From the NCBI GenBank assembly GCA_947561715.1, contig OX387197.1, positions 13,389,001 through 13,453,000 on the forward strand: a stretch of DNA of 64,000 nt. The letters are read 5' to 3'. Position numbers and translations under genes: made by a program. The stretch's first letter is position 1, and the number at the start of each line of letters is the position of its first letter. Shown one piece after another: positions 15,089 to 38,075 of this stretch. Origin of the DNA: Ascidia mentula. Taxonomy: Eukaryota; Chordata; Ascidiacea; Phlebobranchia; Ascidiidae. Below the pieces are notes generated by a model. It was not told the origin of the DNA, did not search any database, and worked only from the letters and a program-made list of their open reading frames with translations.

Positions 15089-18000
15089 ATGAAGTATATT
15101 AACATATGCAAGTGGTTTTGCTTCATTTTGATGTTGAAGTGTACAGTAACATGTGGATGCCCTGTTGGATGCCACTGCAGCAGAAATATTGTATCTTGTC
15201 GAACTTCAGGATTGCATACTGTACCATTCGGTATAGCAAACAACACCGAACGTTTGTACGTAATTTGTTTAATTTCGCGAATTGTTTTATACTTCCCACG
15301 TCTGTAATAGATACTTGCAACATAACAACATAAATCGAGTGACGAGAAATGATTTGGCAGGTTTGACGGAATTACGCAAACTGTGAGTACCTTATTTCTT
15401 ATTAGTTCTGTTCTACTGTCCGCTATATTGCAAAAATTCATAACTGTTTGTTGGTATTAAAAGAAACGAGGTCCTATCTGCCCAAAACTATTTCAGACTT
15501 GCTTGCTCCCTCTTTTTTTCTCGTGGTGTTTACTTACGGTTAGCCATTGGCTTTTGGCAGACGGCTAAGATTTGCGCAGGCTAAATTCCTAAGGCAGTCA
15601 ACCACATCGGTACGTGTTTAGAGGCCCTTTATGACTGCTTCGGTCGATTTCAGTCTGCGGATCATCAACTGTTGTATTCTTTTAGTATATTGTACTATTT
15701 TTGTTATGTGTTTCATTGTTGAAAACTTTTTATTGAGAAAAACACATCTATCTCTATAAACAGAAAAGTAAATTCTCAGTCCAAATTAAAGTTACTACTT
15801 TAATGTAACAGTTCAAATTCCGACAAAACGTTAATGTACTAACTGTGACACCCTCTGCTAACATTCGTTGTTGGTAACAGCAACCGCATGGTTAACGCCG
15901 TAATCGTATTTCAGACGTCACAAAGTGCAATGCACAGAAATGGCAACATATGGCTTATACGTTCAGGTTGGCTCGAAACTTAATTATAATAACTTAGATT
16001 GGTGGAAGCCGTGTTCTCCGTAGGTGATCTTGGTATATCTTGGGTTTATTGTAGCCTAGTATATCAATTGATACAGTCCGTCCATGACATCATTGTTAAA
16101 TAGAGCGAGACGTGTCATTGTATAACGATGGTTGTTCTCTGGAACTCGAGCATTGACCTATTTCCTACTTTAAAATGTTACGCATGGTTTAGTTTGCAGA
16201 CCACATTTTTAGCTTGGTGAGTGTGGGTGAGTTAAAAACATTTAAAGTACATTTAATAGTTAAATGTCTCATGAAAGAGTGTATGCTAAATTGGGCAACA
16301 ATGCCGTCTTTCCAGAAAATGGAACAATTAATTGCCCTTTTATCCTGCAACATAATTTTAAATTTTACGGAATTGCAAATTGTAGCTTTCAATCACTCTC
16401 TGCAAGCAAACGTATTTTTTTCGACTTAGTAAAAAACGACATATAGCATCGGTTCTAGTGATGATACGATTCTACCTTAAAATATTCGTTATCGGCTCCG
16501 ATCCGATATTATTGGACATTCCTACTCCCGTTTTTTTTTGTATTTTTAATGCAGCTACCTCAGTTGTGTAACACAATGCGACATATAAAGGGTTTCTGAT
16601 AAAAATTTGTAACAAGGCTTCGCACTAATTGACCAGCTAAAATTGCATAAAGTATAATTAACAAAAAAATGCGTGAGTTCCGTTTGACAACCAAGGCGTC
16701 TGTATTCAATTTCATTCAAGCGGTGTATTTGACGGCCATGCACTGGTCGCCTCATGACATGCTCGGGGTCACAGGACTCAGGTCGTGCAATCAGGCTACC
16801 GCCTAATGTCACTTATTTAATTGATGTAGGATATGCCCCTCAAGCAGAGGTCGGCAAACTTTAGCAAACAAAGAGCTAGTTACACTGTTTTTGCAATGAG
16901 CTAAAACATGTTTTGAACACCGCAAAACGTTAGTTGGTAAGGGTTTATTTAAACCACACACGAACAAGGGTCACTACATGTTTTCAGTGAACTCGTCGAA
17001 CTATCTAATTGCGTCTATACGGAGCCAGAAAAGAGGGTAAAAGAACTACATGTGGTTCCGCAACCATACTTTCCCGTCCCTGACTCTGTCCTAAAGCAAA
17101 AAAAAACAATTGGTGTTGTGAACTTTTATGCGAATAATAGCTTTTACGTCATAATAACGTAACGGGTTTCTCGTGGATGTATTTTTGCGTTGCGCGAGAT
17201 TAATGCTTTTGGTGCTGAATCAGGGGCGGTTTCCAAATGATTTCGCGGGTCACTTAAAAGCAAACAATCACCCCATTCAAAATGCCGAACTGGATTATTG
17301 AGTTATAGAAGAAGCAAAAACTTTTACAAAGCTGTGTACGTGTTTTCAAAAAACATTCAATGTAACGTTTGGCACTGCCTTTTTGAAAAAGCTTGGAAAT
17401 GACCGGTGTAATTTTTCTTTGAACACGTTTTTTTGTAAAATTTAGCAGCGGAAAGTTGTTGAACTACATCTTTAGGTCGGTTAAACACTGCAAGTCAACA
17501 ACGTTCACTTGTAAGTCTTCAGGCACCTCCTCTAGTTTCACGGAAAAGGGGCAAAAAAATACCAAAAAATAAATGAAATCTGCAGCGAAATTCTTTCCTC
17601 AGCCAAGAAATTAGTTTGGCGTAGTTTATTTTTAAATGTTTTGAACTTGAAGATTCCATACAGTAGAAACAAGGAACAAAATTTTTGTTCTTTATCTGGG
17701 TCTCCCACAGCATTAATTTCATGGCAATGGCGTTGACATGATCAAACATGGAATGTAATATTAGCTGCCCTGTCCTCTGCAAGCGTGAATTTAGTTCGTT
17801 CAAATGTTTTCCTTCCATAGCTACATAGACCTGAGCAGCATTCTTTAGCAGTTTTTCGCGAATTAGCCATAGAGCCTCGGTGTAGTATTGCAGCATTCCA
17901 AAAGTTCGGCCGGCTGCTATGACTAAAACTAAACTAATGTCTGCTTTGCGTGTTCTTGCTGTTGATAACTAATTTTAACTCCGTGAGCAGACTTATTTTA

Positions 18001-21000
18001 TTAATTGAAAGACACGTTGCAATTATCAGTTGGTTTCTATTTAAATTGTCCAAAGTGTTTGGTGAAATTCAAAAAAAGGAATTCGAAGGCGTTTTTATAA
18101 CGAAGTGTCAGAGAAAATGTGTGTTGTCCAGTAGGCTGTGAGCGTTCTTGCATCAGTAACGCTTAACGCCGCCTCCATCCTTTCCGTCTGGCTTGGCGTT
18201 CCATCAGTGTGTATGGTTGGGAAACATGAGTGGTGGTCGGAATTAGGCCAGAAAACATGCGTGTGGTGCTACAATATGTAGTGTCTTCAAATTCTGCTTT
18301 CATGGTCGTTATAAGGTCTTGAAATTGTCTGTGGTCAGACCTTTGGAACGAATGTAGTCCACCGTTTTTGTGACAACAGACATGACATTTTGTATCTTTG
18401 AAGATTTTGTATTAAAATTCTCTTGGTGCATTATGCAATAAAACTACATTAAAGACAAATTCCCTTACTTTACTCGAGTTGTAGCAGGTTTATTAGACCA
18501 AGTTGCCTCCCAACTATTATGGGACACCTTCAGCATCGGTGGTTATTCCTGAAGGATTCCTTAAGACAACTCAATAAGACGCTTAATTGTTGCCATCACA
18601 ACATCCAATATGTCAATTGTCAACGCCTCTAGTTCCTTAAATTGGGACAATGGCGACAATTTCTTCGGCAATGTTAAAGTCGTCATATGCTCCACGAACG
18701 AAGGTTGCTAACTGAGCTGTAGATCTAATGTTGATGCTTTCGTCAAGCGCAACATATGATAATAATTTTCGTACTTTAAAAATCGAATTTTCCACAATAG
18801 AATCGCCGAGCTCTTCAATACCACGAGTTATGAAAGGCCTATTTTGAAAATCTGAAAAACTTGAACGATGCATTTCTTTATCCGAGTATATGGCCAAGTA
18901 ACTCACTTTCACAAAACTGATTCGTGCTGCAAAGAAACTTTTTAAAAAACTGATTGCTGACCCTGAACAACTTCTTGCACCTTGTCGTGCTTAAATTCAT
19001 CATGCTATTTCTCGTAAACTGATGAAGGTTTATTCCGATATAGCTTGATTATATATCATGTCAGACAAATTGGCTTATTTCCGCCATACGTATGAGCGCG
19101 GGTAAATTCGGTTCAAACGGCGTCCTTCCGTCCGGCATTCGCCACCCCTAAATCCAGGGATGTTAAGTTGACAAAAAAAACGCTAGTTGACAAAACTTTG
19201 GACGCGGGTTACTCGGCCGCCCTACGAGGTAGCAGCATGATTTTTTCACACATAAAAGTTCTTACAAACTGAGTCGCAAGTTCGGCTTTTGAATATACAA
19301 TCCTATACCATACTAGTATCGAATGAAATCAAACTTGAATCAATTCGCTCGAGGATGCTATGCGAAATTCAACGATAACTCACGCCAACCCGACCGTCGC
19401 CCGCCGCTCTTTTAAGCCGTCAAGCCATACGCATAAGCGCCATATACTTTCGTCGATAAATGTTCTTACAAACTGAGTCGCAAGTTCTGCTTTTGAATAT
19501 ACAACCCTACACCATACTAGTATCGAATGAAATCAAACTTTAATCAGTTCGCTCGAGGATGCTATGCGAAATTCAACGATAACTCACGGGGTCAAATTAA
19601 TTCCTTTTAGTTTAGACCAGGTTTTCGTTCGGTTTTAGCTGGTTATTATGAAATGCTTTGCCAACCACTGAACAAGGGTAAAGTTTGTTTTTCTTTAGCA
19701 GTCTATTGAGATCTGTATGCAGGTAACGTTTAACGCCTAGCTCAGAACTAAATATTTGTACAATAGTTAAAAAAAAGGGGGGCATAAACACCCGGAGGGC
19801 AATTGTGCAGAGGAGATATGGGCCTTGAATTGTTGCTATTACACCCAAAATAGTGTCCATTACCCCCAGGGGGCAACAAAGCACCTGTCCAGCAACCAAT
19901 TTTTACCAGAATGTGTAGATGAGGGATGGATCTTTCCTAAAACTATAAATGACTGAGCGATTCAGTTTGCTTTATCACCTTTAAAACTCAGAAAATATGT
20001 CAAACCAGTGGGTGATATATTTCACAAAAATGTGAATTCTTATTTTCATTATAAAGCACACCAAAATTTTCATTATGACAAACAGTTCTACAAATTTCAT
20101 GTTTGTTGCAAATTTTTTTTAAACCTATTGCAGTGCAAGGCCATCAATTTGGTAGTACACAACATTTAACAAGCAATTCTCATACACAGAAGTAATTTGC
20201 AAAAGAAGAAATGTATATACGTTATTGTATATGCACAATTACTTACATGTAGAAATACTTACCAGTGTACTATTTAATTGAACATAAATGCAAAATAACA
20301 ATATCTATATTTTCAGACATTTAAATGGAAATAGAATTACATGTATTCAAGATGGTTCTTTTCAATCTTTGGTCAATCTTGAAATATTGCTGCTCAACAA
20401 CAATAATATTTCTTCAATTCCTTCCACAGTATTTGGTCAACAACCAGTTAACTTAAGGATGATGTAACACTTCAATTTTGCTTTTTTGTAATTTTTAAAT
20501 GATTCTTTATCAAAGATTATTTGATAGAAATCTGAACTCAAACCCTCTTAATTGCAATTGCCAACATATCTGGTTGCTGGAATGGATGCAATTACGCCCC
20601 AGTTTGACTGTTTCTTCATCTTGTTTCATTTCTCGAAATGAGGAAAGTTTTGAAACTGTACAGCTGGAATGTGAGGGTAAAAGAAAGTTATTTACAAACC
20701 ATGAATAAGTTACAACCTAACTAACATTATTCTGGACCAATCAATGAATTCAGTGATCATAACTCTTCATTATTTGGTTGAGGTGTGCTGTCGAATTTTT
20801 AAAGTTTAGGTATGATGTCAGTGAAAAAAGGTTGTGAAACACTGGCATTAAACATTTTGTGTTAAATTTCAACTGAATGTTATATATATACATATATATA
20901 TTATATTTTTTATATAACATTCAGTTAAATATATATATATTGCTCCTTTTTACATGTTACACCGACAATAAAGAACCAGTAAATGCTTATCTTCAATATA

Positions 21001-24000
21001 ATACCGGCTGGTTGCAAAGTACATGTTTGTTGTTGGAGGTGTAGATTTATCAGAGTTCAAATGCAACTATATGATGTAGTTGGGGTGTTTTATATGTTCC
21101 CACATAGTGCAAAAATGCTAAGGGGCACATGATAACATTTAAAATTTGGTGTAGAATTGTAACTTAAAATTATTTATAGTCCATATCTATAGTTTTTGTT
21201 GGATGTTAATAGAATAGTTCATTGATTTTATGTAGTTTACTGTTATTAATTTTATTATCTATTATCGAAATCATAATTTCGTTGAAATGCCTCAGCAGCT
21301 ATTTTAAATGTGAACAAATATTCAGCAATTCAAAGTAATTGCCTTACAAACACCTGTATTTTTGTTGTTCCCACAGATGCACCTTTCCGACAACAAACCA
21401 ACTGTGAAACAATGTCATGCCCAAGCAACTGTGTTTGTGGTATGGGGGTAGTTGATTGCAGAAATCGCAACCTAGTGTTGTTGCCAGTCACATATCCCTC
21501 AAACATAACTGAACTGTAAGTTACACTAAACTGTAAAATATTTTTTTAATGTATAGACTGTTTCTAGGCACCTAGAACAAAATTTGATTCAAACAATTCC
21601 CACAATGGCATTCTCACATTACCGGAACTTAAGAAGGATGTATGTTTATTTTTTTGTCCAAGTGTTTATGATTTAAATAAAGGTATTCTAAAAGGTGCAA
21701 AAGAAGGATTTTGTATCTAATAAAACTGAAAAGCAAAAAAATATACTAGATTAAAATGTTATTATCAGGTTTTTGAACCATGCTTATTCCAATTTTATGG
21801 TTGTATAACATTCCTTATTGCTAACCTTTTTTTAGTGATTTGAGCAACAATGCAATAGAGGAAATTCAACCAGATGCATTTAAAGGTCTTTATTATTTGA
21901 CTTCCTTGTAAGTGGTTGTGTATGCTAAAATAGTAATACAACAAAATATCAAGACAGATTTTGTTTTATTCATAGAGTATTGTATGGAAATGAAATTACA
22001 ACTTTTCCACCGGATGTATTTAAAGGATTAAAAAATCTTCAAATGCTGTATGTATGAACATAAATTTGGGATAGAAATATTGGTGCAAATAGCAAAGTGG
22101 TATATATATTTTTGGTAACATGTAAATCTTAAACAGTTTGCTAATTTTTGTATTCCATTTTTTAGAATTTGTTGTAGATAAAAGTAGTAGATAAAAAAAC
22201 TTGTATTTTTTGTTTTCTTCAGGCTGCTTAACGCAAACAAGATTAGGTGTCTTCGCCATGATGTTTTTTCTGGGTTAACAGCTCTTAACCTTTTGTGAGT
22301 ATTGATCTGTAATTTGTTAGAAGCCAAGTCAAAGTCTGGATTTCTGACATCTAGCATAACTTATGTAATGTGTCACACAAAAGGTTCTTTAAATGCTGGC
22401 TAGCATGATGTTAATATCAAAGCAAGTGCATCCTGATGTCGGCCTTTTTTTTGTAACAGCCCTCCCAACAGTTTCCTTTTCAAAATTTCGTGTATTAATG
22501 TATATTAGTTGCATCAGTAATGTTTGATAACATGATGTTTGTGCTTTTTTGCTGTTGGTTTTAAAATCAAAAAGACTTTCTTTTGAAGGCTTTAGTGTTC
22601 TGCAGTATTTTTAGAAAAAAAAACTTTTGGTGTTGCTACAACAATATTTTTTATGTCCATCCAATTTTCAAACAATTTATATATATATTACAGGTCTCTT
22701 TATGATAATAGTTTACAACATCTTGTGAGAGGGACTTTTGAATCACTTCAGTCTATTGAAACCCTGTAAGTAAATTTAAACTAATATTAACTGCTCCTTG
22801 TGACTTGTGACTTTTGAAGACATTTGGCACAAAATCCTTTTATATGTGATTGCAAACTGCGATGGTTGACAAAATATTTAAAGAAAAATCCAGTTGAAAC
22901 ATCTGGAGCCAAATGTGCTGGGCCATCAAAGCTAACCAATAAAAAGATTGCCCTGATCAAAGGAAGAAGATTTCGATGCCATTGTGAGTGTTATGTACAG
23001 ATGATTATTAAAAAAAAAATTTTAGTCAACTGGTTTTATTTTTGCGGATAAATGAGAAAATGTTTTCTAGTAGTGATTGAGCTTGCCAAAGTACCGATAC
23101 GTGTAACAATGTTTTTTGTGGATAAACTTTGCAGTGGAAATCAATTACAACTTGTAACAATTCCACCTAAAGCTGAAGATGGCAATTTATCAGTTAAGGG
23201 GTGCAAAATCAATACTTGAATGGTATACTTTGCCGTGTGCTGCAAAGTGGATTATTGTGTAGTTTTGGAGCTAATACATATTGTCGTTGTGCAAGAGAAA
23301 CCCGAATGTTTTTAGTAGTGTTAAACCCTGATGTAGACAATATAGGGACCTGTCATGCCAACAAACCAGCCCCCTAGTTGCGCCACTGTTTACAATTTTT
23401 GACTATGATACATCTGTATCACTTATATGTTTTTACTGATATATTTTTTTTGTTCAAGAAGTAAATGTTGCAGTGATTTGTACAAAAAATTCATCACATA
23501 AACATTACCAATTCACATTTCTGCTAGAATCTCAAAGCCTATTTTTCCAGAAATACAAACTGCTCATTATTTTTATTTTTGCTAAAACGTGTGGCCACCA
23601 TGCTGGCATTAATGTAGGAAAATAAAACCAAAGCTTTTCTACTCCAGATTGTTAATGATATTGCAGTAAAAACTTGCCACATTGGGGCAACACCATAATG
23701 TAACAAAGCCACAATAAAACATAAAACAAGCTAAATGGAAAAATGATGATGAAGAAAAGCAAATATAATTTCAAACACAATATTGAGATCTTCTTTTTTT
23801 TCAACAGCATGTAAACTATCATATTGTCTGGCAAAATGCTATATTATATTATTTCAAGATCATTTCTTTGCAATCCAGCTATTCTCCATATTAAATTTTT
23901 ATTATGTAGAAGGCGTCATTCTTGTATTTAAACAGTATTTTGTTCATGTTTGCAGCTGCCAGTAGAAAAGTGTTGGAAAATGCTGAATGCTTACCTGATG

Positions 24001-27000
24001 TTGAATGCCCACAACTCTGTCACTGTGATGCAACTAGCATTGACTGTTCTGCCCAGTATAAGCAAGAAATACCAAATAACATACCACCATATGTTTCCAT
24101 AATGTATAATATTCTCATATTGTTTGACAACAATATTTGCAAATTGTTGAATTTATTTTACAGAAATTTAAGTCATAACAACATTAGCTTTATTACAAAT
24201 AACCGGGCTTTTGAAAAGCTACGAAATGCGAAAAGGTTGGATTTGTCTCATAATAACATTGGGCACATTGAGGAGGGTGCTTTTGTTGGTGCTGTTAACC
24301 TTGTAGAATTGTAAGTATTTGTCTAAAGTTGTGATAATTCTTTTAAAAATGTTTTTCTAGGCATTTAAACAACAACTTAATAAATACTGTACGAGGATCT
24401 TTCTTTCATGGCCTAGAAAACTTACGGATCTTGTAGGTTTATTATCAACAGTTTTTGTTTTGAACTTTTTTAATGAAACAGTTACTTCTCTAGAATCATC
24501 AGAAACAATAAAATATTATGTGTTCACAATGACTCTTTTGATGGCCTTTCTTCCCTTGAACATCTGTCATTATATGGAAACAAAATTACTACAATAATGA
24601 TTGGTTCACTAACTGCACTAACTTCATTGCAAACCTTGTATGTATTGATTGATCATTTTTTTGTAAATTTGCAGGAAAGCTAATTGATTTTAGTCAATAG
24701 AAATAAATGTTTCCATGTTACGTGAACAGTACTACTATGTGCCCAAACCACTGGCAGTTTAAAATGATGGAATATAGATTTACAAATATGTTAACACAAA
24801 TTTTTGTTTGGGATAATTGTTGAGTAATGATGTGCAGTAGTACCATTTAAAATTTAGTATTTTTTTGTATTTGGGCCTTTTGCACAAACATGGTTCAAAA
24901 TTAAACTATTATTGAGGGTAATTCCAAGTATTCCAAATTGCTTTTGCAGTACATCGAGAGGAATAGTATACATAAACAAAAGATAAAATACCACTTGTCA
25001 CCATAATAATAACAGTGTGCCAAAAGAGTAATATAGTCGAAACATTATCAATGAAATAATTACATGAAGTTCATAATACAAGTGTTGTTAATTTGAGTTC
25101 GAAGTTCAGTTGAGCAATTTCGCAAGTGATGTTCTGAAATCTATTTTGTTCACAAAAAGAGCATTTGTATTTTCTTCGATTTTGCTGCATGTAGACTGAT
25201 CAATCACAATATTTTACAACAAGTGTAATGAGCAAAATTACTTGATACACAAAAATAAGTAGACATCTTTTTTTGCCATTCAAAGTTGATATTTTTCACA
25301 CCTGTGAATCTTTTTGTGTTTTGGACAGAAATTTATTGGCAAATCCTTTAAATTGCAACTGTCATATGGATTGGTTTGGAGCATGGTTAAGAGGAAGTGC
25401 TGTTGCCACTGGAAATCTTCGTTGTGCTGTGCCAACATTTTTGGCAGGTTTGCCCATTTCAGACATAAATTCTCAAGATTTTCAATGCAATTCAATAGAA
25501 AGAAACTATTCTGTGTGCTCATATTTTGAAACTTGTCCATCTGGATGCATGTGTCAAGGTATGTTGCATTTATTGGTATTCAAATGCTGAACCATATGTA
25601 ATTGGTTTTTCACAATCTCAGCACTTGTCGTACAATGTGGAAACGCAGGACTGACAAAGTTTCCAGTCACTGAAATTTCACAAGATGTAAGTGAGCTGTA
25701 CATAAACAACAATGACATTATGTTCCTTCCTTTAAAGATCAATGAATTAGTTTTTCTTACAACACTGTAAGTAATGTATGTGTTGTATTTATAATTTTAT
25801 TTAATTTTTGTTTCGTTCCAGTGATTTGAGCAACAATAGTCTTGTAACTATAAGAGAACACCAATTTTCTCAACTGAAGAAACTACAAACCTTGCTCCTG
25901 GCACATAATAAGATCCGTTGTGTATCACAAACTTCATTTTCAGGCCTTGTGTTTTTGAGAAGCTTGTAAGTACTAATTATATCTGTAATCAAAAGTTTCA
26001 GCTTGCACCGTAGAAGAATTACAAGAAGTAGTTTTTTTTAACATTGTGTGTTTTCTTTATGGTTGCTATTTGAGTACACATACTGATGCACATCAATGCT
26101 CATACTACTATTAAAAAGCACAGCAAAAAGTCTTTTAAATGTTTGTTGGCTGTTAGTGCTGTATCATTATTGCTTAATCAATGTATTTGGCTTATTCACC
26201 AATTACTGCTGCAAAAACTGGTAGGTTTGTTTCAGTAACAGACACAGCATTCCCGATACATCAGGAAGGCTAGTATAAAAAACACTTTGCTGTGGAGGCA
26301 AAAATTATTTCAAACTTTTTTAATAATCTTTTAATAGTGTTTGGTCATCATAACATTAAACTACAAATGTAAATTTGTTTCACAGATCACTGCAAGGAAA
26401 TAACTTATCATCATTACCAGAGGGAGTGTTTAATAGTCTTCCATTGCTAAGGAATGTGTAAGTACGCAAAACAGAAAAAGGTTTTAAACTAGCAGTGAGG
26501 TCACTTTGCTACAAGGCTCTTTTCTTCTCAGCAGTCATATCAAATCATGATATTATAATAATCTTACATCTGCAGAGATAATCTTTTTTCTAGGACATAC
26601 ATTAAAAACCACTTTTTGCTCGGGTTGGCATTTTAAGCTGCATCGACGGCCGAAAAACTTGTAATGATAACATGGAATGTGCTGTAACCCATTATGGGGA
26701 GCACACAACCTTCTGAAGTAAGCACCATGTGCAAAACTCTACGCCTATGTCTGTTGTACAGAAAATAAACATCTGCTAACTAATTTATTTATGGCTCGTG
26801 AAATGCCACTAAAATTGTTTAAAAGAAACAGTTTGGATTATAATTGCTTTAGACTAAACATAGCTGACAGTTAAAAAGTACAGCAAACTAGCATATCTTG
26901 TAGTAGTCTTCCCGTCAAGATATTTATTATGTCCGGTGAAAATTTTGTTCACCTAACTACGAGTCCCTTAATTGGTGCAACATAAAGTGCAGGACTCAAG

Positions 27001-30000
27001 GGGCAATATAATTTTTTCACAAACCAATGTTTTGCTGTATTGTTAATTGTGATGAAAAAACGTTTATGACAGAACAAGTGAGATCATATTATTGAATTGA
27101 GAGTGCCAATTCATACATATAAATAAAGTTCCATAGGTATGTAATAGTCACCTGAAAGAACAAGGATCACTAGACATCAGTCAAATATTATGTTTTAAGT
27201 TTTGCAAAGTTAGAATGCTTTAAGTATGTTTAATGTTTTGGTCCGCAATGTTTCAAGGTACAAATCAACTATAGTAAATTCAGTATCTATATTTATAGGT
27301 ATTGATGGTGATGTCATAATAATTTATTAATCTTTGTTTAAATTGTTGTGAACAATAATTTTATTTACAAAACATCAGGTCACATCTATGCTGGCATATG
27401 AATCCTATGTAGGCAACTGCTTTTACTTCATGTTAGGATGGTCTCATATGTAACAATGAGCCTTTGTACTATGATATATTTTAAATAAGTTAAATTTTTC
27501 TTTTAAACTTAGTTTATAATAGTATGTTTGTTGTATAAATTCAAGACTCAGTTCAGGATATATGAAAAAAATAGGTTATGGGCTTGCAAAAATGTACTTG
27601 TATGAACAAGCAAAATATGTGTTGCATTTCAGTGGACTCAGTGCTAATCCATGGTATTGTAATTGTCGTTTGCGTTGGCTGTCACATACTTTAGACCAGG
27701 TTGGAATAGCTCGATGTTTTGGTCCGCAAAATATGAAAGGAAGATTGATTGCGACATCAACTGCAGATATGTTTGTATGTCAAGGTAAGATAAAACCTAA
27801 AGATATTTTAAGTTTCAACCAGTTTTAGAGTGAGATGTATAAAATATAGTGTGGACTGCAGTTAATCTGGTTTTTGGTAAATCCTGAACTTTGCCTAATT
27901 TTTTTTTTGAAATTGGGGGGTGTAAATGATTCATATAATTTTTTTTTGGATAAAAAAAATTTGAAAAACAGAAAGCTTGGAAAAATCTTAAGTATTTATT
28001 CTAGATCCTTTCCAATTCCAGATAGAAGGCTTTTTTTACATTTTATAACATATACTTAGACTCTTGCTTTACTGCATTGTTCTCTTTAACATTAAAGCGT
28101 GTAGTGTAGAATGTCAATTCACCCAAAGCTTTTTGTGTAATCAGTGCTTAAGGTTAGAAACAATTGTTGGAGTACTTATTTTATATGTCCAGGTTACAAC
28201 AATGTCTTAGTTGTTCTTCAATTAGGTGCTTGTTTTTGCCAATATCATACTAGCTATACAGTGTCAGACTTGAAACAAGTGCCTTCAGACCTCTGATACT
28301 TCGCTTGTTCCAGACAAATCGAATTTAGATTAACTTAGGTCTACTGTATTTAAAAACACGCTTTTTGATTTCTGTGACAAATTATGTTTTGACACAAGAT
28401 AACAACTAACATCATAGTATTTAGATTAAATTTAAAGATGTCATTCTAATAAACTATCATTCTTTCGCAATTTATTGCCACAAAATTGTACTTCACAATA
28501 CTGACAATAGTTTCTATTGTGTACAGCAAATTTTTAATGATAAGGTTTTGTTGAAAAAAAAACTTCGTAACAGGTGCCATTGATATTGACATTGATACAA
28601 AATGCAATCCATGTTTGTCTTCTCCATGTGGACATAATTCAACATGTACTGTTGATATGATGCAACAATACTCTTGTCATTGCCAAACTGGTATGTTGGT
28701 GAAACAAAAAAGTGGACCTTACAGTTTGAAAAATATACATTTTTGCAACAGGAAGTCTTGGCAGGAATTGTGAAGTTTCTGTTGGATCATGTGGCTCATT
28801 GCCTTGTTTAAATGGTGGAACATGTGTTGAGACAAGTGAAGTGGACTTTGTGTAAGCTGTACTAAATGCAAATAAATTTTCAGAATTTTTTTTTATCTTA
28901 TAAATGAAGTCATGAGAATTTCATCAAACGAAAAAAGAATTAGTGACCTACAGACGATGCCCCCATTTTGAGCTACAGAGTCTGATAGGTTATGGCGCAA
29001 TAATGCACATAATAAATCGCTTGGGGAATAATAAATTGTTATGTCCATAATACAAGATGAAAGTTGTATATATAAATTACAGTTTGGTGTTAATTTGATT
29101 GATAAATTTGTATATATTGCCGCTTGTAATTATTGTTAAATACTTCTGTGGTTTAGTTTCAAACACCTTGACCTGACCCCACAAGAAGGGGTGCAGTCGG
29201 TGTGGCACACAGCAGTATGAGAGGCTCATGAATAGCAAAAGGGGGCTCGGGGCTGGATTCCACATAACGTTTTAATTTCATGTTACATTTTTTTCTCTTG
29301 TCATAATTATGCTGAGGCATACCATTGCAAGAAACATTATTTGTGGTGATCAACTAAATCTTTCTCTGTGACACATAGTTTGATGAAGTACAACAATACA
29401 TATTTGTATATATTTTGGTTCACATGAATGTGGAAATTTTGCTGATATTCAGTGAATCTGTTCAGGTTCGTCTTGGCACATCCCAAAAACTGGCATTGGC
29501 AATAAAACTGATATTTTGCCCAATTAAGTTATCAAACAATATATACATATTACTTACCAAATGGTGTTGCTTTGATACCAATATGAGTGTGTACTTTATG
29601 AATTTGTTCAACAAAAATACAAAACGTAACAGTTTAGCTAGCTTATATCATCATATCAAAACTGTGTGGTTATCTGTAAACATGATGTTAAAATCAAGTG
29701 GGCTTACTGTTACTGTTTACTTCAATGTGATCAATTTCAGAAAACAAAAGTTTGAATCCTGCTATTAATGCAATAAAATGCTTATAACCTGTTTTGCTGC
29801 CCATTTTGTAGTTGCTTAGTGGTTAATTCACAATTTAATGTTGTATCTTGTATGTATTAAGTTTATGTGACTACATCATGTTTTAGTTGCAATTGCATTG
29901 ACGGATTTGAAGGAAAACAGTGTGAAGTTAATATAGATGACTGCAGAAGTAACCCTTGCACTGCTAAAAACGCAACATGCATTGACGAAATGCAATCTTA

Positions 30001-33000
30001 TACATGTAGATGTGCACCTGGATGGTGAGTAAAATTTTATATTATGTTTTTTTTTCCAACAAAACAATCCCTACTGTTCCAAAGGAAGAAACAGGGTGGC
30101 ACAGAACACATTCAACGATTCCAGCATCATTTTAAGAATATTCTTTGCACTCACACGTAGCATTGACCTTTGACTTTTAATTTTCCTGCATTAAAATATG
30201 TAAAGTTTTTAGTTTGGATGTTAATGGCTTACTAACAATATTTTCATTAATTTTACTTGAAAGTAATTTATTGAATGTTGGTGACATTTTTTGTTGTGTA
30301 ATGTTGTTTTCATGTTGGATATGTAGCTGCAGAAACTTAAGAACTATTTACATAGCAAAACTTATTACATGTAACTACAATATATGCAACAAAATAATAA
30401 ACTGTTCCATTGCATAAAATGAACTTTTCCGATTGTTTTAAGGCAAGGAGAAAACTGCAGTAAGGTCATGTCCAATGCTTGCATGCCAATAAATCCATGT
30501 CTCAATGGAGCGGAATGTGTGATGGAAAACAGTGGTGATGCTTCCTACAGGTCCCTGCCCACCCCATTTTCTGCATACACTTTATTTGCCCAACACACTA
30601 CTTAATAAATGGTCTTTTTAGGTGCTTATGTCCAGTTGGATACTATGGTAAAAATTGTTCAAGAAATGCATGTTATTACAACGGCTGTCAAAATGGTGGT
30701 GTGTGTGTAATAAACAATCATTCAGATGCTGGTTATCATTGCCACTGCCATGGCATGTTCCGGTAGGTTTAGGCCATTTTTCAAATAGATGTTTTGCAAA
30801 AATATACACCATAATTTATTCAGAGGAAGAAATTGCTCTGTACCAGTTATTGATGTTTTGGTGCAAGATGATCCATGTTCTCACGCATATTGTCTGAATG
30901 GAGGTGAATGTTATCACAAGCAAGAGTCTGGTAAATATGGTTGCTGGTGTCCTCCTGGCTATAGTGGAATCACTTGTGAAAAGGTGGTTTGATTCATATT
31001 TATATTTTATGTGTTTTCACTTTGGCCCTTCTCAGTTTGCATGTGATTGTAATTTTTTTAAGTTTTAACACTTTTATGTCTTTAGGAATTACACTAAATA
31101 TACAACAACTTATCATTGATAAATGTTTGTCATGGTTAAATTACATCTCTGTGGTAAAATACATGATGTTCACAAACATTAATTGTAATGCTTGAATGAA
31201 TTGAAAAAAGAAATTTTGTAATGTTGTTTTGCATTTGGATCCAAATTGCGTACAATTTAGTTTTTGGTCATAAACAGTTTTTAGGGCTTGATTTACAAAA
31301 TTCATACTTAACATTGCATGAAGTTTTTGCATGATGACATTTTACTCATTTTCGCACGCAGAAAGGAGGCTGATGATCAGTCGAGTTTTAATATAGGTAT
31401 AATTTATCTTTACATCTTAACATTTTTCAGCTATCCAGCTTAAATATTCAGGAAAATGGGAGCTATGTTCAATTACATTCTATGTCAGATCAAAACATGA
31501 ATATCACAGTATTTCTTTCCACTCTTGAGGTTATTTTGTGTTGCAAAAATGTTCTGTTTGTGCTTTTGTTATTTGGTGACTAACAATACTTTATGCAGCT
31601 CTTTGGAATTATATTTTACAAAGGATACGTACATAGTAGTAAACATGTAGCTGTTGAATTTTATTCTGGTCACATTCGACTCAGCATTGATTTAGGAAAC
31701 TTTCCTGGATCTACTTTGTATAGTTCAGTCCCAATAAATGATGGAAAATTACATAAGGTATTAAGTTATTAATAACAATAATCTCACGTGACAATAACAA
31801 TTTGAGCAACTAGTGTGCTTCCATACTATAAAATATTTATAATTTTTGCAAGAATTCAGGTTAGTTGCAAACTTATTCTGCATTTCTTTGATTAAAAGTG
31901 TTATAAACCTTTTTTTTGTTGGTTCAAGCATTGTCACCTATAAAAATTATGAATAATACTTAGCCTTGTTTTGAAGCATCAATCATGTTGCTTAAATATG
32001 ATTTGTTTATCTAGCAATAAGTTGCATATAAAAGTCTATTTTTGTAAACCATTATGTGTTACATTAAATTACATGAAAAGGCAAAATGAACTGGTTTATA
32101 TTAATTACTGCATATCAATACTCAAGTTCTTCTAAGGTTCAAATCATTATTTACCACGGATCTGTATCTCTAAATCTTGATGACCTTCACACAGTAAGAG
32201 TAAACGTTGGAACAATTTCTGAAGATACAAATGAGTATATGACACCATTTTTTGTTGCTGGTGTCCAAGGGGAATTGTTAACATATGCCAAAAAGATGAT
32301 ACATATTCGCAACTCAACTAGTTTTAGAGGTTGGTGAAATGGCTAATTAATGTATACACTAAAGGTGAAAATGTTAATTCAAGGTTACCTAAGTAGAATT
32401 GATTGTGCAATTTTACTTAAACAGTAATTCTGTTACTTTTTTTACAGGTTGCATCGATGCATTGTATTTTAATCAATCAAAGATAAATTTTAATGAGTTC
32501 CTCCCAAATGAACACCAAATAACACCAGGGTGTACAGAAGATTTAGGAGATTCTACATGCTCTTTATCAAGATGTGGAAACCATGGGAATTGTCAATATA
32601 GACCTGATTACGGAATACACTGTGTTTGTGACAGTGGCTACACAGGTACCCAAGACTACAAATTTTTTTACAGCTTAAAGGTATTTTTCAATTTCTTCAG
32701 TTTGTCGTGTCTGTCTCTGATCTATGACTATATGCTTGCTTGTGCACTGCTTTTATAAGAGACTGACTGTTAAACAACTTTATTGGCACGAGCTTTCGCG
32801 AGATTGATCTCGCTTCATCAGGTGCAGCAAATGACGTGTCAAATAAAATGCGGTAACAGCGCTAAAAACAAGGAAGAAAAAAGAAAAAACGCACGAAGAG
32901 GTGATAATTGTTGGTCACTGAGTGCCCGTGGCATCTTGGTGCGTATAATGGCTCATAAAGCCCCAGTCTCTATTGAGACCGTGGTTGATAGAGTCAAATT

Positions 33001-36000
33001 TTTGGATGAGGCGTTGTTCTGCCGTCTCTCTCGCTAGTCTCGTTCTTCTCATAACCTTCTGTAGCACCATGACCCTCAAGTCTTCAACACTGTGGTCAGG
33101 CTCGTTGAAATGAGCACCTACCGGTTTCTCGTAGTTGTTGTGCCGAATATCATTTTTGTGACCGTTCATTCTCTGTCTCAGTGTTTGTCCGGTTTGTCCG
33201 ATATACAAAGCTCGTGGACAGCGCGCACACGTCAAAGCGTAAATGACGTTCGTTGACCTGCAGGAAAATGTTCCCTGTGGTGAGAAATGTTGCCCATGCT
33301 TTGTCATGAGCTGATTAGATCGGTTAATGTGGTGGCACAATGCGCATCTCGCACCTCCACATGGGTATGTCCCAAAGTTTTTCTTGGTAGTAGTCTCCGT
33401 GTGGGTTAGCATTGTTTTCAGGTTTGGTGGTTGGCGATAAGCGACAACCGGTAGCTGCGGGAACACTGCACAAAGTCGGCTGTCACCATGCAAGATGGGC
33501 TGTAGGTCTTTTGCGATTTTTTTCAGTCGTCCCATCGGTTTGTTGTATGTGACGACGATGGGGATTCGTGTGTTTTTGCTACCACGCTGGTTCTCTTGAA
33601 TAAGCAGGTCTCGTCGGACGGTCGTCGCTCTTGCCATCTCCTTGTCTACCATGCTGGATCGGTAGTCATTCCCTATAAACCTGGTACGCAGTTCGCGCAA
33701 CTGTGCGTTGCAGTCATCGCGACGGGAACATATTCGTCTGTACCGGAGTGTTTGTGAGTGTACAATGGATCGATACACATGTTTCGGGTGGGCACTGGAA
33801 GGATGTAGGTATTTGCCGCTGTCCGTCGGCTTCCGGTATATGGAGGTGAAGAGTTCACCGTCGTTTAGCGAAACCGTTACATCCAAGAAATGCACCGAAG
33901 TGAGCGAGTGTTCCATGGTGAACTGTATGTTAGGATCCTCTTCATTGAAGTCCTCCACGAAGGCTCGAAGAGAATTCTCTCCCCCAGTACAGATAAAAAA
34001 GATATCGTCGATAAATCGACGGTACAATACAAGGGACGGTTTCCAGGTGTTCGTGAATCGTTCCTCTAGATCTGCCATGAAAATGTTCGCGTACTGTGGT
34101 GCTAGGCGTGTGCCCATCGCCGTCCCCTTGACCTGAATGTAGTGTTCATCGTTGAAGAGAAAGTTATTGTGTGTCAGAATGAACTTGGTCAATTGAATAG
34201 CAATTTCTGTGAAGTCATCTTCTTCGGGAAGTATTTTGTGCAAGGCTTGCAGTCCACGTTCGTGGTCTATGTTGCTGTACAGGGATACAACATCCAACGT
34301 AACCAGTATAGCCTCGGGTGGAAGGTGTTTGATGGAGGATAGCTGTCTGATGAAATCCGTGGTGTCCCGAACATAGCTATTGGCGGCTTGAGCGTGTGGC
34401 TTTAGTAATTTTTCCACGTACCCCGATACCATTTCCGTGAGCGTGCCAATGCCGCTTACAATTGGACGTCCCGGAATATTCGGTTTGTGTACCTTGGGTA
34501 ACATGTAAAAAAAGCCTGGTGAAGGGTCCTCGGGAATCAACAAGCCCAGCTCTTTCCGGACCCGCTCTGGAAACGATTTAACCAGTTTCACAAGTTCTTT
34601 CCTGTATTTATCTGTGGGGTCAGTATCAAGTTTATTGTAGTACGTTGTGTTGTTTAGTTGCCGATGGGCCTCTTGTATGTAGTCTTTTGTTTCCATGACA
34701 ACCACGGCACCTCCCTTGTCCGCGGGTTTAATTGTAAGGTCTTTGCAATTCCGTAGTTGCCGGACAGCTTTTGATTCTTTTACGGATAAGTTGTGGTGAA
34801 GTCTGCTTTCTTTGTTAAGAATTTCCGCTTCTGCGCGATTCCGGAAACAGCTTATGTAGAGGTCGAGGTTTGGATTGCGTCCTTCCGGAGGTGTCCATTC
34901 GCTGTGGTGTGATTTGGAGTGGGCATCATTCGTGTAGCCACCTTGTGTGTTTGTAGAGTTCGCATGAAAATATTCAGCCAGGCGCATGCGACGAAAAAAC
35001 GCCTCTAAATCTGCGCATGCTTTAATTTTGTCTAGCGTTGACGCTGGGCAAAAGCTAAGACCCTTCTGGAGAAGTGACGTTTCGCCACTGCTAAGTTCAT
35101 GGGTAGATAAAGTTCATGGGTAGGTATTTTTCAGTGAGCATGGTACAAAAAAACCTTTAAAATATATTTTTTATCTTTCTTAATTTTTTAAAGTAGGGAA
35201 CAGATTGCAAAATCAAACAGTTGTATTTTAATATTAATTATTATATAGTTCTTGACATAATGTGTTTCAAAAAAGGCTGTTTTCGGGCAGAAGTCCTTGT
35301 TAGCCTGGAAATGTTGTTTGGGGTAGGTGAGTTTGGAACATCAGTGCTTAAGCACCAGTAGTTGTGGAGTAGGATTTTTATTTTCTAGAAGTTTAAAATG
35401 TTAATGAAAAAATCTAAATGTTCACAACAGCATTACCCCATGTCTTGAAAATTTAAAAATGCTGTTGCAGTGGAAATACAAAACTAAATCACTGTATATT
35501 TGATTTTGGTGTTTTCTTTTACAACCTCACAATTTGAGTGGGTTAACAACCCTATTTGGTGAACATGGCTTTTATGTATTTTCAATACATCAATGAATGT
35601 CCCCTGTCAAATGCGGAGATAGAATACAACTATGAGTAAAGGATTTTATGCGTACAAAAATTCACATATAGATGAACCATATGTTCACTGGGAACACTTT
35701 GTTCATGGCAGCATTATTTAGTTGTTCCCATAAAAGCAAATATTATCATCAATAAAAATTTTCCTTATATTTATTGTCTCAATTGCTTCTACGAAAGTGG
35801 TTCGCTTGTTGCGAGTGAAGCACACATTTACGAACTATACTTTCTGGTATGTTTTTTTTTGTGATTCTATTTGCACAGCATTCAACTATTATGATTTACT
35901 ACTTTCAATTAATTCTTTGAAAGTAATATTGCGACATAAAATCTCTGTTTATTGTTTGCAATGTCAACAATTAGTTGCCACTGTAAATGTAAACCTGCTT

Positions 36001-38075
36001 GATTATAATTGGTTGGTAAATGTGGAATAAAACGTTCATGCGATAAAACTTTGTTTAAACTTGGTACTATGATGTTAAACCTGAATGTATAGTATGTCTC
36101 AAAAGTTCCCTTAGCACAATCAATCAAAAGAAACAAATTGCTACGACATTTAATAACAAAACATTTAAATTGTGTTAGCAAACCAGTTCAGATTTTTAGT
36201 TTTCCACTTCAGATTTCAGTTTTCGTACTCGGGTTTCAAATATTTGTAAACTGGAATTTTTAAAAAAATTGGGTCACTTTAAGAAAAAGTTGGGAACCGC
36301 TGCCTTAAGTATTAATTAATTTCTGAAGGGTACCTCTCGAAAACTTCCAAGTCATTTTTTATTTTAATGTTGTACACTTTCATGCACTTTTCCTTTCATA
36401 GGTACAAATTGTAACCAAAGAACTGTAAATATGTGTGATGGACATCTTTGTCAACATGGATCTTGTGTTGCACTCAAGCAAGAATATAAATGCAAGTGTG
36501 CACAAGGTGAGAAGTTTAACTTTAAAGTATGGCAAAAATAAAAAACCCTACTACAGAAATACAAGTTCTTAATTTTTTTCGAAGGCAGATATACAAAATA
36601 AAAAGTAAAACTTAACTAAAGTAAAATTATGCAATAGATTAACCACAAAGCGAATGGTTTTGTGAAGGATATTTGCATTTGTACATATGGGCAGATTAAT
36701 CATGTTGCATAAAAGTGAACAGCATAGTTTTAGCTTTAGATTATTTTTTTTGTAATAGAGGTTACAGAAAAGCTAACAATGTAGCATATATTTCAAAAAT
36801 GAGTATGAAACAATGTTTGGAGGTTGCAGAATACTTTCCAAATAAAAATTTTGTATTCATACAAAAGTGGTTTCTGTTGCTTTACTTATAGGCACATTTG
36901 GAGTACCAACATGTTCTATTAAAACTTAATAAAGTTTATTCATATGATTTTTTACAAACTACAAATAATCACCAGAGTTAAATAAAACTGTCCAAGTTAG
37001 TTTGGACCGATACATCTCTTACCTCAACATTATATCCATCTAACCCCACCGCTTAAAAATGAATACAAAAACTCTGGCGATTGGCATGATCTGCTTATTA
37101 GTCAAACTTGTTGGTCTGCCTTTTGGTTCATTTTAAAATGAAATGCAAGTTGTCTATTGCACTGATACATAGTTAATCTGCTTTTATTACAAATCAAGAG
37201 TCAGTGGTGACAGAAATGATAACCCTTTAATTAGCCATATTTATTGACAACCATCTTAAAACAAATAACACCATAAATTATATATTTAACTCACAGAAGG
37301 GTTTACCTAACACTTAATGTTAAAATGGGTTTTACTTAATGGTAATGCAATACTCCAAAATAACTGGTATATGGTTTTGACTTTTTGACAAGTGTTTTTA
37401 TGGGACCTTTTCCAGGATATACTGGAAAATATTGCAGAAGTCATGTATGTTCAAAGGCAAAGTGCAATCGTGGAACGTGCATACCAACAGAAGATGGGTA
37501 TAAATGCAAATGTCAAAGACACTATTCTGGAGAGCATTGTGAAGACAGTTAAGTTTTGTTTAAATCCCATTAGAAACAACATTTTTTATAGTAAGCATTA
37601 AACCTAATTCCTCTCTGCCTTTAAAAGAATTGGGTTTTTGACAAAAAAGGCATTGTAACTGAAGTCTATTGGTCTTGGTATGTGCTTGATACACAGAACT
37701 CAAAACTACACATGTAACACAGCAGAATTATGTGTAGGAATTCGGAAGTGTAGAGGAACTCGGATCAAACAGTTTTTTGACATAAGACAGAAAATACAAG
37801 CACCTGTCATGTCAGATAAAGAACACAACAAAACAAGAATGTGTCGAAGCAAGCGTCGGTATACAAACATTTTGTGCAACAGCAATTGCTCTTTTAAAGA
37901 CCGAACCAACAGAAAAACAATGTTTTTTAAAACTGGTGGAATTTTATGCTGTCAGCCATTTAGGATTCAACAGAAGCGTGTTCGCATGAAATGTGATGAT
38001 GGAAGCAACATTTTTGAGGTTGTGCAGAAAGTAAGGCGCTGTGCTTGCAAACAATGCAATCACACTATTCCATAA
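15089..38075 (+). CDS. SLIT: Slit axon-guidance ligand
   Basis: About 33 exons encode about 1490 aa. A signal peptide comes first ([18 protein letters not shown]). LRR domain 1 uses exons 15089-15255, 15311-15382, 20317-20463 and 20528-20676. Domain 2, the usual Robo binder, starts at 21377 and has five 72-nt single-repeat exons before its cap at 22820-22983. Domain 3 is 23956-25558 and domain 4 is 25622-27784. Six EGFs follow (28574-30983), then laminin-G (31431 to about 32560), three EGFs (to 37547) and a C-terminal cystine knot (37697-38075, ending CACKQC near its tail). LRR exons are symmetric at phase 2. Family knowledge: Slits are secreted and repel growing axons and cells through Robo receptors. 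Two oddities: domain 1 lacks the repeats equivalent to LRR2-4, and the last junction (donor 37548, acceptor up to 37696) does not keep frame with canonical sites. Slit identity is certain; single exon edges are by eye. Confidence 0.95.
16845..19150 (-). mobile_element. Decayed hAT transposon, GTF2IRD2/ZBED5-like
   Basis: Two minus-strand fragments belong to the hAT-derived GTF2IRD2/ZBED5/EPM2AIP1 protein family. The fragment at 18637-18912 carries the catalytic-region block [20 protein letters not shown] followed by [13 protein letters not shown]. The fragment at 17519-17896 carries [15 protein letters not shown] and later [10 protein letters not shown], matching the family's later region. 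The order on the minus strand is correct, but the sequence between is lost or scrambled and the C-terminal dimerisation domain is not seen. A likely left terminus CAGAGGTCGGCAAAC is at 16845 and a candidate right terminus near 19150. I cannot find a target duplication, so the outer limits are tentative. Confidence 0.72.
19258..19588. repeat. Direct duplication of 127 bp, 204-bp period
   Basis: Copies at 19258-19384 and 19462-19588 differ at only about five or six positions. Both begin GTTCTTACAAACTGAGTCGC and end CAACGATAACTCACG. A 77-bp spacer separates them. The sequence is of unknown origin and lies next to the decayed hAT in Slit intron 2. Confidence 0.85.
20871..20926. repeat. Perfect 16-bp inverted repeat, AT-rich loop
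   Basis: The arms AACTGAATGTTATATA (20871-20886) and its exact complement (20911-20926) flank a 24-nt TA-rich loop. It lies in a Slit intron. It is probably a hairpin-prone microsatellite expansion or a tiny palindromic element; no target duplication is seen. Confidence 0.6.
23178..23385. repeat. Dispersed repeat segment
   Basis: It is similar in order and wording to 48641-48815. Shared blocks include GATGGCAATT, CTGCAAAGTGGATTATTGT (diverged), GAAACCCGAATGTT and GTAGACAATA. It lies in the Slit intron between the LRR2 cap and LRR3. Confidence 0.6.
32794..32821 (-). other. Hammerhead-ribozyme-like core in Penelope end
   Basis: On the minus strand the sequence reads CTGATGA, one A, a perfect 6-bp stem GCGAGA/TCTCGC closed by a 4-nt loop TCAA, then GAAA. 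This is the arrangement of the hammerhead core (CUGAUGA, stem II, GAAA). Penelope-like elements are known to carry hammerhead motifs in their terminal repeats. The extra A before stem II is non-standard, and stems I and III are not obvious, so activity is uncertain. Confidence 0.4.
32915..34987 (-). CDS. Penelope-like RT / GIY-YIG protein
   Basis: The 690-residue frame starts at the first ATG (MRLAEYFH). The same frame is open upstream to about 35106 and encodes conserved Penelope N-terminal wording ([13 protein letters not shown]), but has no ATG there, so the true start may be lost. Order: N-terminal region, [11 protein letters not shown] motif near residue 88, reverse transcriptase with catalytic RFIDDIFFI about residue 330, and a C-terminal GIY-YIG endonuclease ([14 protein letters not shown]) near residue 595, preceded by cysteine/histidine pairs ([11 protein letters not shown]). 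Family knowledge: Penelope-like elements copy RNA into DNA at a nick made by this endonuclease. The uninterrupted frame suggests a young insertion. Base composition is more GC-rich than the host genes around it. Confidence 0.9.
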   Translation of the reverse strand: MRLAEYFHANSTNTQGGYTNDAHSKSHHSEWTPPEGRNPNLDLYISCFRNRAEAEILNKESRLHHNLSVKESKAVRQLRNCKDLTIKPADKGGAVVVMETKDYIQEAHRQLNNTTYYNKLDTDPTDKYRKELVKLVKSFPERVRKELGLLIPEDPSPGFFYMLPKVHKPNIPGRPIVSGIGTLTEMVSGYVEKLLKPHAQAANSYVRDTTDFIRQLSSIKHLPPEAILVTLDVVSLYSNIDHERGLQALHKILPEEDDFTEIAIQLTKFILTHNNFLFNDEHYIQVKGTAMGTRLAPQYANIFMADLEERFTNTWKPSLVLYRRFIDDIFFICTGGENSLRAFVEDFNEEDPNIQFTMEHSLTSVHFLDVTVSLNDGELFTSIYRKPTDSGKYLHPSSAHPKHVYRSIVHSQTLRYRRICSRRDDCNAQLRELRTRFIGNDYRSSMVDKEMARATTVRRDLLIQENQRGSKNTRIPIVVTYNKPMGRLKKIAKDLQPILHGDSRLCAVFPQLPVVAYRQPPNLKTMLTHTETTTKKNFGTYPCGGARCALCHHINRSNQLMTKHGQHFSPQGTFSCRSTNVIYALTCARCPRALYIGQTGQTLRQRMNGHKNDIRHNNYEKPVGAHFNEPDHSVEDLRVMVLQKVMRRTRLARETAEQRLIQKFDSINHGLNRDWGFMSHYTHQDATGTQ

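What the first reader, a model, noticed from the sequence alone, without database searches (positions are those of the whole stretch)
15311..20463. Slit domain 1 lacks LRR2-LRR4, at a transposon-filled intron
The exon at 15311 matches Slit LRR1 ([21 protein letters not shown]). The next coding exon, 20317, matches LRR5-6 ([20 protein letters not shown]). Three repeats present in vertebrate domain 1 are absent, and the 4.9-kb intron between holds a decayed hAT element. LRR exons are 72 nt and phase-symmetric, so losing three of them leaves the frame intact. Domains 2-4 keep their repeats. The loss could be real or an assembly error.
Basis: partly seen in the sequence, partly recalled or inferred. 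Interest (0 to 1): 0.72.

Follow-up and report, generated by a model that had tools for sequence, protein, structure and literature searches.

The report
Slit gene missing three LRR exons
In this sea squirt's gene for the nerve-guidance protein Slit, the first of four repeat domains has three repeats where human Slit has six, apparently because three whole exons are absent, while the receptor-binding domain next to it is intact; this is a modest, probably real variation on a well-known protein, and its suggested link to a transposon is not shown.

Summary
Confirmed: the window holds a slit gene (+ strand, 15089 to about 38.07 kb) whose D1 keeps LRR1 (exon 15311-15382) and LRR5-6 (exon 20317-20463) but not LRR2-4. 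A 20-exon model of D1-D4 is in phase at every junction, without stops (817 aa); repeat counts are 3/5/5/4. Against human SLIT2 D1 (recalled letters) the one large gap is 72 residues, LRR2-4 to within a residue, i.e. three 72-nt exons. No convincing LRR lies in the 4934-bp intron on either strand, no further 72-nt LRR exon elsewhere in the 64 kb, and no orphan exon was recognised in the genome (low power). C1 has exactly the length of Ascidia mentula's longest scaffold; that assembly is HiFi, QV 64.9, and the window has no N, so an assembly error is possible but unlikely. The hAT-like relic is real; a causal link is unsupported: the intron also holds a second repeat family and no relative could be examined. 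Most likely an in-frame loss of three symmetric exons, with D2 (Robo-binding in other Slits) kept. No cDNA, reads, alternate haplotype or other tunicate was examined; those are the decisive tests.

The parts
15089..15255 (+). slit exon 1: signal peptide and LRRNT cap of D1 (cap cysteines present, read from the sequence)
   Evidence: gene model; Pfam LRRNT 26.8 bits, cut-off 25.8
15311..15382 (+). slit exon 2: D1 LRR1, 72 nt, phase 2-2
15383..20316 (+). intron 2 (4934 bp), where LRR2-4 exons would be expected; longest of the 19 introns modelled in the D1-D4 region (median 68, next 1175)
17693..18840 (-). broken hAT-like transposase, three collinear pieces inside intron 2
   Evidence: tblastn with genome relatives L014 and L016; L016 carries Pfam Dimer_Tnp_hAT above cut-off
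19156..19587 (+). fragment of a multi-copy repeat with 204-bp internal spacing inside intron 2
20317..20463 (+). slit exon 3: D1 LRR5 and LRR6
20528..20676 (+). slit exon 4: D1 LRRCT cap
21377..22983 (+). D2 (Robo-binding domain in other Slits): LRRNT, five 72-nt LRR exons, LRRCT
   Evidence: 123 of 206 residues identical to human Slit2 D2
23956..25558 (+). D3: LRRNT, five LRRs in three exons, LRRCT; the last exon also starts the D4 LRRNT
25622..27784 (+). rest of D4: LRRNT, four LRRs, LRRCT
28597..38072 (+). C-terminal part of slit (EGF repeats, laminin G, probable cystine knot); approximate limits, exons not modelled
   Evidence: open frames; Pfam EGF and Laminin_G above cut-off, Cys_knot 21.2 bits below its 24-bit cut-off

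Best explanation
The slit gene of the ascidian Ascidia mentula encodes a Slit whose first LRR domain has three repeats instead of six. Three consecutive 72-nt, phase 2-2 exons (LRR2-LRR4, 216 nt) were lost in its lineage. Because LRR exons are modular and phase-symmetric, LRR1 splices straight to LRR5 in frame; both capping motifs survive, so D1 should still fold as a short capped solenoid. D2, which binds Robo in other Slits, is intact, so repulsive signalling should persist, with any D1-specific contact reduced or lost. Shown: no recognisable LRR2-4 in this assembly at this locus, open frame, phases, complete D2-D4. Inferred: that a six-repeat ancestor lost exons, that the transcript is spliced this way, that D1 folds, and that Robo signalling is kept.
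For: 20-exon model with every junction in phase and no stop over 817 aa. One large gap, 72 residues, at LRR2-4 to within a residue, the same under all three gap settings tried; the other gaps are 5 residues in LRRCT and one extra residue in LRR6. One-to-one repeat assignment. No convincing LRR in the intron with or without splice sites; no further 72-nt LRR exon in the 64 kb on either strand. D2-D4 near full length against Slit2 chains. HiFi assembly, QV 64.9, no N in the window.
Against: No cDNA or reads were examined. The human D1 letters are recalled. The genome-wide search for displaced exons has little power for single 24-residue exons. 2 of 17 real repeats of this gene score below the intron's best, and recalled human LRR3 (13.2) lies below the 95% point of shuffles (14.0), so one divergent repeat could be missed. 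Weak tblastn matches exist in the intron: E 0.029 to the human LRR5-6 query, 0.078 to LRR2, 0.21 to LRR3; I take them as chance. Without other tunicates the direction and age of the change are not established.
Confidence: 0.8

Rival explanations
1. Assembly error or haplotype-specific deletion: the real locus, or the other haplotype, carries LRR2-4 exons that this contig lacks.
For: The intron holds repeats, and the deposited assembly is of one haplotype with a separate alternate.
Against: HiFi 74-fold, QV 64.9; no N; one slit locus recognised; no orphan Slit-like exons recognised elsewhere (low power); flanking exons intact and in phase.
Confidence: 0.1
2. The exons are there but too divergent or too oddly split to recognise.
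For: 2 of 17 known repeats in this gene score below the intron's best stop-free frame; a frame with a stop scores 10.5; weak tblastn matches at E 0.029-0.21.
Against: All three would have to be missed. The intron has 3 stop-free AG-72nt-GT frames on + and 5 on -, none LRR-like. tblastn with recalled human LRR2, LRR3 and LRR4 gave at best E 0.078, 0.21 and 2.8 in the intron, while LRR1 and LRR5-6 found their exons at 9e-6 and 1.3e-11.
Confidence: 0.07
3. The hAT insertion caused the loss: insertion or faulty excision of the element removed LRR2-4.
For: The relic lies in the intron at the loss, and that intron is the longest of the 19 modelled.
Against: No breakpoint identified and no target duplication searched for; a second repeat family sits in the same intron; another hAT-like relic lies at 43544-44020, outside the gene, so such relics are not special to this intron; order of events unknown.
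Confidence: 0.08
4. A three-repeat D1 is an old state of tunicate Slits, not special to A. mentula. (Compatible with the best explanation; it differs on when the exons were lost.)
For: Not testable here; compatible with all data.
Against: None obtained; scans for relatives in the collections on hand gave none.
Confidence: 0.4

Closest known systems
Vertebrate SLIT2 (human)
   Same: Four capped LRR domains, then EGF and laminin G; D2, D3 and D4 align over nearly their full length with human Slit2 chains 2v9s, 2v70, 2wfh.
   Different: D1 has 3 repeats rather than 6 (human D1 recalled; alignment).
Drosophila Slit
   Same: Four-LRR-domain architecture (review PMC12308364, passages seen).
   Different: From recall, D1 also has six repeats; not tested here.
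Amphioxus Slit-N-like LRR genes / FrLRR
   Same: Another chordate case where Slit-type LRR exons were rearranged; exon shuffling proposed by its authors (PMC10199209, passages seen).
   Different: There Slit-type LRR parts were joined to another gene; here three exons are missing inside a complete slit.

Membership tests
Slit | Four capped LRR domains in tandem (D1-D4) | tested here: met
   20-exon model; D2-D4 match human Slit2 chains at E 3.6e-82, 4.9e-62, 1.3e-44; D1 caps present
Slit | EGF repeats and a laminin G domain after the LRR domains | tested here: met
   EGF 22.9 bits (cut-off 21.5) and Laminin_G_2 31.5 bits (cut-off 22.9); number of EGF repeats not counted
Slit | C-terminal cystine knot | tested here: inconclusive
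   Cys_knot 21.2 bits, E 0.00036, below its cut-off of 24
Slit | D2 binds Robo | not testable with these tools
   Only sequence conservation seen: 123 of 206 identical
Six-repeat D1 as in vertebrate SLITs (not a defining feature of the Slit family) | Six LRRs in D1 | tested here: not met
   Three repeats; LRR2-4 not found; the six-repeat reference is recalled
hAT transposon (intron relic) | hAT-type transposase | tested here: met
   Three pieces collinear with genome relative L014; relative L016 has Dimer_Tnp_hAT 29.0 bits, cut-off 21.4. Against: the 7 intron open frames scanned (of 29 listed) gave no hAT model at E<=1
hAT transposon (intron relic) | Terminal inverted repeats and 8-bp target duplication (recalled feature) | tested here: inconclusive
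   Among 23 inverted-repeat pairs listed I saw no clear termini; target duplications were not searched

The most novel reading that the evidence does not exclude
An ascidian lineage has reduced Slit D1 to a minimal three-repeat solenoid by clean loss of three modular exons while D2-D4 stayed complete: a natural deletion experiment suggesting that most of D1's binding surface is dispensable in an animal with a very simple nervous system, possibly started by transposon activity in the same intron.
Probability: 0.25. Interest if true: 0.45.

Novelty: new variant of a known kind. Interest (0 to 1): 0.3.

Why it matters
A review describes one structural framework shared by all Slit proteins, with four LRR domains (PMC12308364, passages). 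A natural Slit with half of D1's repeats gone but an intact D2 would help separate what D1 does from what Robo binding does. It is also a clear example of a repeat domain changing size by loss of symmetric exons.

Tried and rejected
Displaced or inverted exons within the window: the splice-constrained scan of the 64 kb, both strands (69 frames on +, 50 on -, top 22 of each printed), showed no LRR exon beyond those of slit; the scan without splice sites was run on the intron only. Displaced exons elsewhere: recalled human LRR2-4 against the whole genome gave 109 matches at E<=10, on nine contigs, the best 36% identical at E 5e-6; the only one inside this slit gene is exon 3 (LRR5). I did not look into the others one by one. 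A second slit copy: D1 matched at high identity only this locus. A solved Slit D1 for reference: none among the 60 chains shown of 239 matched, so the D1 comparison rests on recalled human letters. Relatives: viral contigs and genome-contig scans with D2 gave none; metagenome scans were capped at zero. Literature on tunicate Slit repeat number: nothing recognised in the listings; of the papers listed there only PMC7535936 was opened (passages). PMC526463 and PMC2693880 are not held. PMC2235866 passages gave no repeat counts. Species guess Clavelina, tried first, rejected: its scaffold lengths differ. A tRNA scan did not bear on the question.
Full report
What is there. The window carries one slit gene on the + strand. 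A 20-exon model from 15089 to 27784 covers signal peptide and D1-D4; every junction has AG and GT signals and matching phase, and the 817-residue product has no stop. D1 is LRRNT, LRR1 (15311-15382), LRR5-LRR6 (20317-20463), LRRCT. D2 has five repeats, D3 five and D4 four. D2, D3 and D4 align over nearly their full length with human Slit2 chains 2v9s, 2v70 and 2wfh (E 3.6e-82, 4.9e-62, 1.3e-44). Downstream frames include EGF and laminin G above the Pfam cut-off and a cystine knot below it.

Which repeats are missing. Scored against the six repeats of human SLIT2 D1 (recalled letters), the window repeats pair one-to-one with LRR1 (60, next 34), LRR5 (68, next 46) and LRR6 (45, next 36). A global alignment of D1 gives 65 of 154 aligned residues identical and one large gap of 72 residues, LRR2-4 to within a residue; it was the same with all three gap settings tried. 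The other gaps are 5 residues in LRRCT and one extra residue in LRR6. 72 residues are 216 nt, three 72-nt exons.

Are the exons hidden. A scan for stop-free AG-72nt-GT frames with a hand-set LRR score gave nine sites at 18.7 or more in the 64 kb: the eight 72-nt LRR exons of the model and the first half of exon 24494-24637. The best in the 4934-bp intron scored -7.5 on + and -7.4 on -, and no extra LRR exon appeared elsewhere on either strand. Without the splice requirement the intron's best stop-free frame was 7.2 (7.7 with the last-codon bonus) and the best with a stop 10.5; 60 base shuffles of the intron had a median maximum of 7.2, a 95% point of 14.0 and a highest of 16.3. As control, 15 of 17 real repeats in this gene score above 7.2 and 14 of 17 above 14.0 (the exceptions are D1 LRR6 at 11.9, D3 LRR1 at 6.0 and D4 LRR1 at -1.5); recalled human LRR2, LRR3 and LRR4 score 27.9, 13.2 and 22.6. 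tblastn with human repeats found exon 2 (LRR1, 9e-6) and exon 3 (LRR5-6, 1.3e-11) in the control stretch; in the intron the best E-values were 0.078, 0.21 and 2.8 for LRR2, LRR3 and LRR4, 0.63 for LRR2-4 together and 0.029 for the LRR5-6 query, which I take as chance. One very divergent repeat could escape; three together is unlikely.

Could they be elsewhere. Recalled human LRR2-4 against the whole genome gave 109 matches at E<=10; the only one within this gene is exon 3. That search is weak for single 24-residue exons, and I did not inspect the other matches singly. The D1 query matched at 86-98% identity only at this locus (150 of 202 candidates scored, list cut at the weak end).

Whose genome. 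Contig C1 is 27,920,005 bp, the exact length of the longest scaffold of Ascidia mentula kaAscMent1.1 (PMC11109543, first of three parts read). C67, C70, C72 and C73 (22.72, 21.17, 19.66, 15.45 Mb) round to published chromosomes too, but the held copy is not identical to the published totals: 195.84 Mb in 79 contigs against 196.98 Mb in 95 scaffolds, and C70 and C73 are about 1 and 5 kb short of the published N50 and N90 scaffolds. Independent support for a tunicate: 18 AGR codons in the 539-residue open stretch that holds mitochondrial COX1, many at glycines that I recall as conserved, as under code 13, and two GH6 matches over the cut-off (GH6 as a tunicate trait among animals is recalled). 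The paper reports 74-fold HiFi, QV 64.9, one haplotype with a separate alternate, and RNA-seq run ERR10378036. The window has no N. An assembly error is therefore possible but unlikely.

The transposon. Three collinear pieces of a broken transposase lie on the - strand between 18840 and 17693; a further piece at 17568-17488 has only E 0.11. A genome relative (L016) has Dimer_Tnp_hAT above its cut-off; 7 of the 29 intron open frames, scanned themselves, gave no hAT model. Apart from itself, the 117-residue piece tested matched 10 places at 33-49% identity, while DNA at 17882-18138 matches one place on C73 at 75% over 168 bases and 87% over 46 bases. The copy looks old, but I did not date it. 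The intron also has a fragment of a repeat family with 204-bp spacing at 19156-19587, found in many other places (118 matches, self included, 40 of 901 candidates scored). Intron 2 is the longest of the 19 modelled (4934 bp; median 68; next 1175), but it is also near the gene start, where long introns are common (recalled). I found no breakpoint and made no search for a target duplication. A causal role for the hAT element is not supported by anything beyond position.

How it likely works. Slit binds Robo through D2 (PMC4011710, section 10 read; PMC11506736, passages), and D4 forms dimers in vertebrate Slit2 (PMC12308364, passages). Both domains are complete here. LRR exons of this gene are entered and left in phase 2, so loss of any number of them keeps the frame. 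The caps of D1 are kept, so a short capped solenoid is expected (inference). The likely outcome is a Slit with preserved Robo signalling and a reduced D1 surface (inference).

Limits. No transcript, reads, second haplotype or other tunicate was examined. Scans of viral contigs and genome contigs with D2 returned no relative. Paper searches that could have shown a described tunicate Slit D1 listed none that I recognised as such (one of the listed papers opened, by passages). Whether the short D1 is specific to this species or general in ascidians is open.

Noticed in passing
window 43544-44020 (- strand): Another hAT-like transposase relic, downstream of slit, with a stronger match than the one in the intron (tblastn E 4e-12).
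   Followed up: partly
window 33000-35000 (- strand): Open frames that look like a reverse-transcriptase relic (resemblance recalled; one 81-residue piece gave no Pfam match at E<=0.001) within the 3' half of slit.
   Followed up: partly
window 19156-19587 and many genome places: Repeat family with 204-bp spacing; in the listing several copies come as pairs in opposite orientation a few kb apart, as if long inverted ends of a larger element.
   Followed up: partly
window 5367-5442 (+): tRNA-Thr (ggt anticodon) predicted upstream of slit.
   Followed up: no
G000:C79:4437-5774 (L012): Mitochondrial COX1 with AGR codons at positions fitting glycine, as in the ascidian code.
   Followed up: yes
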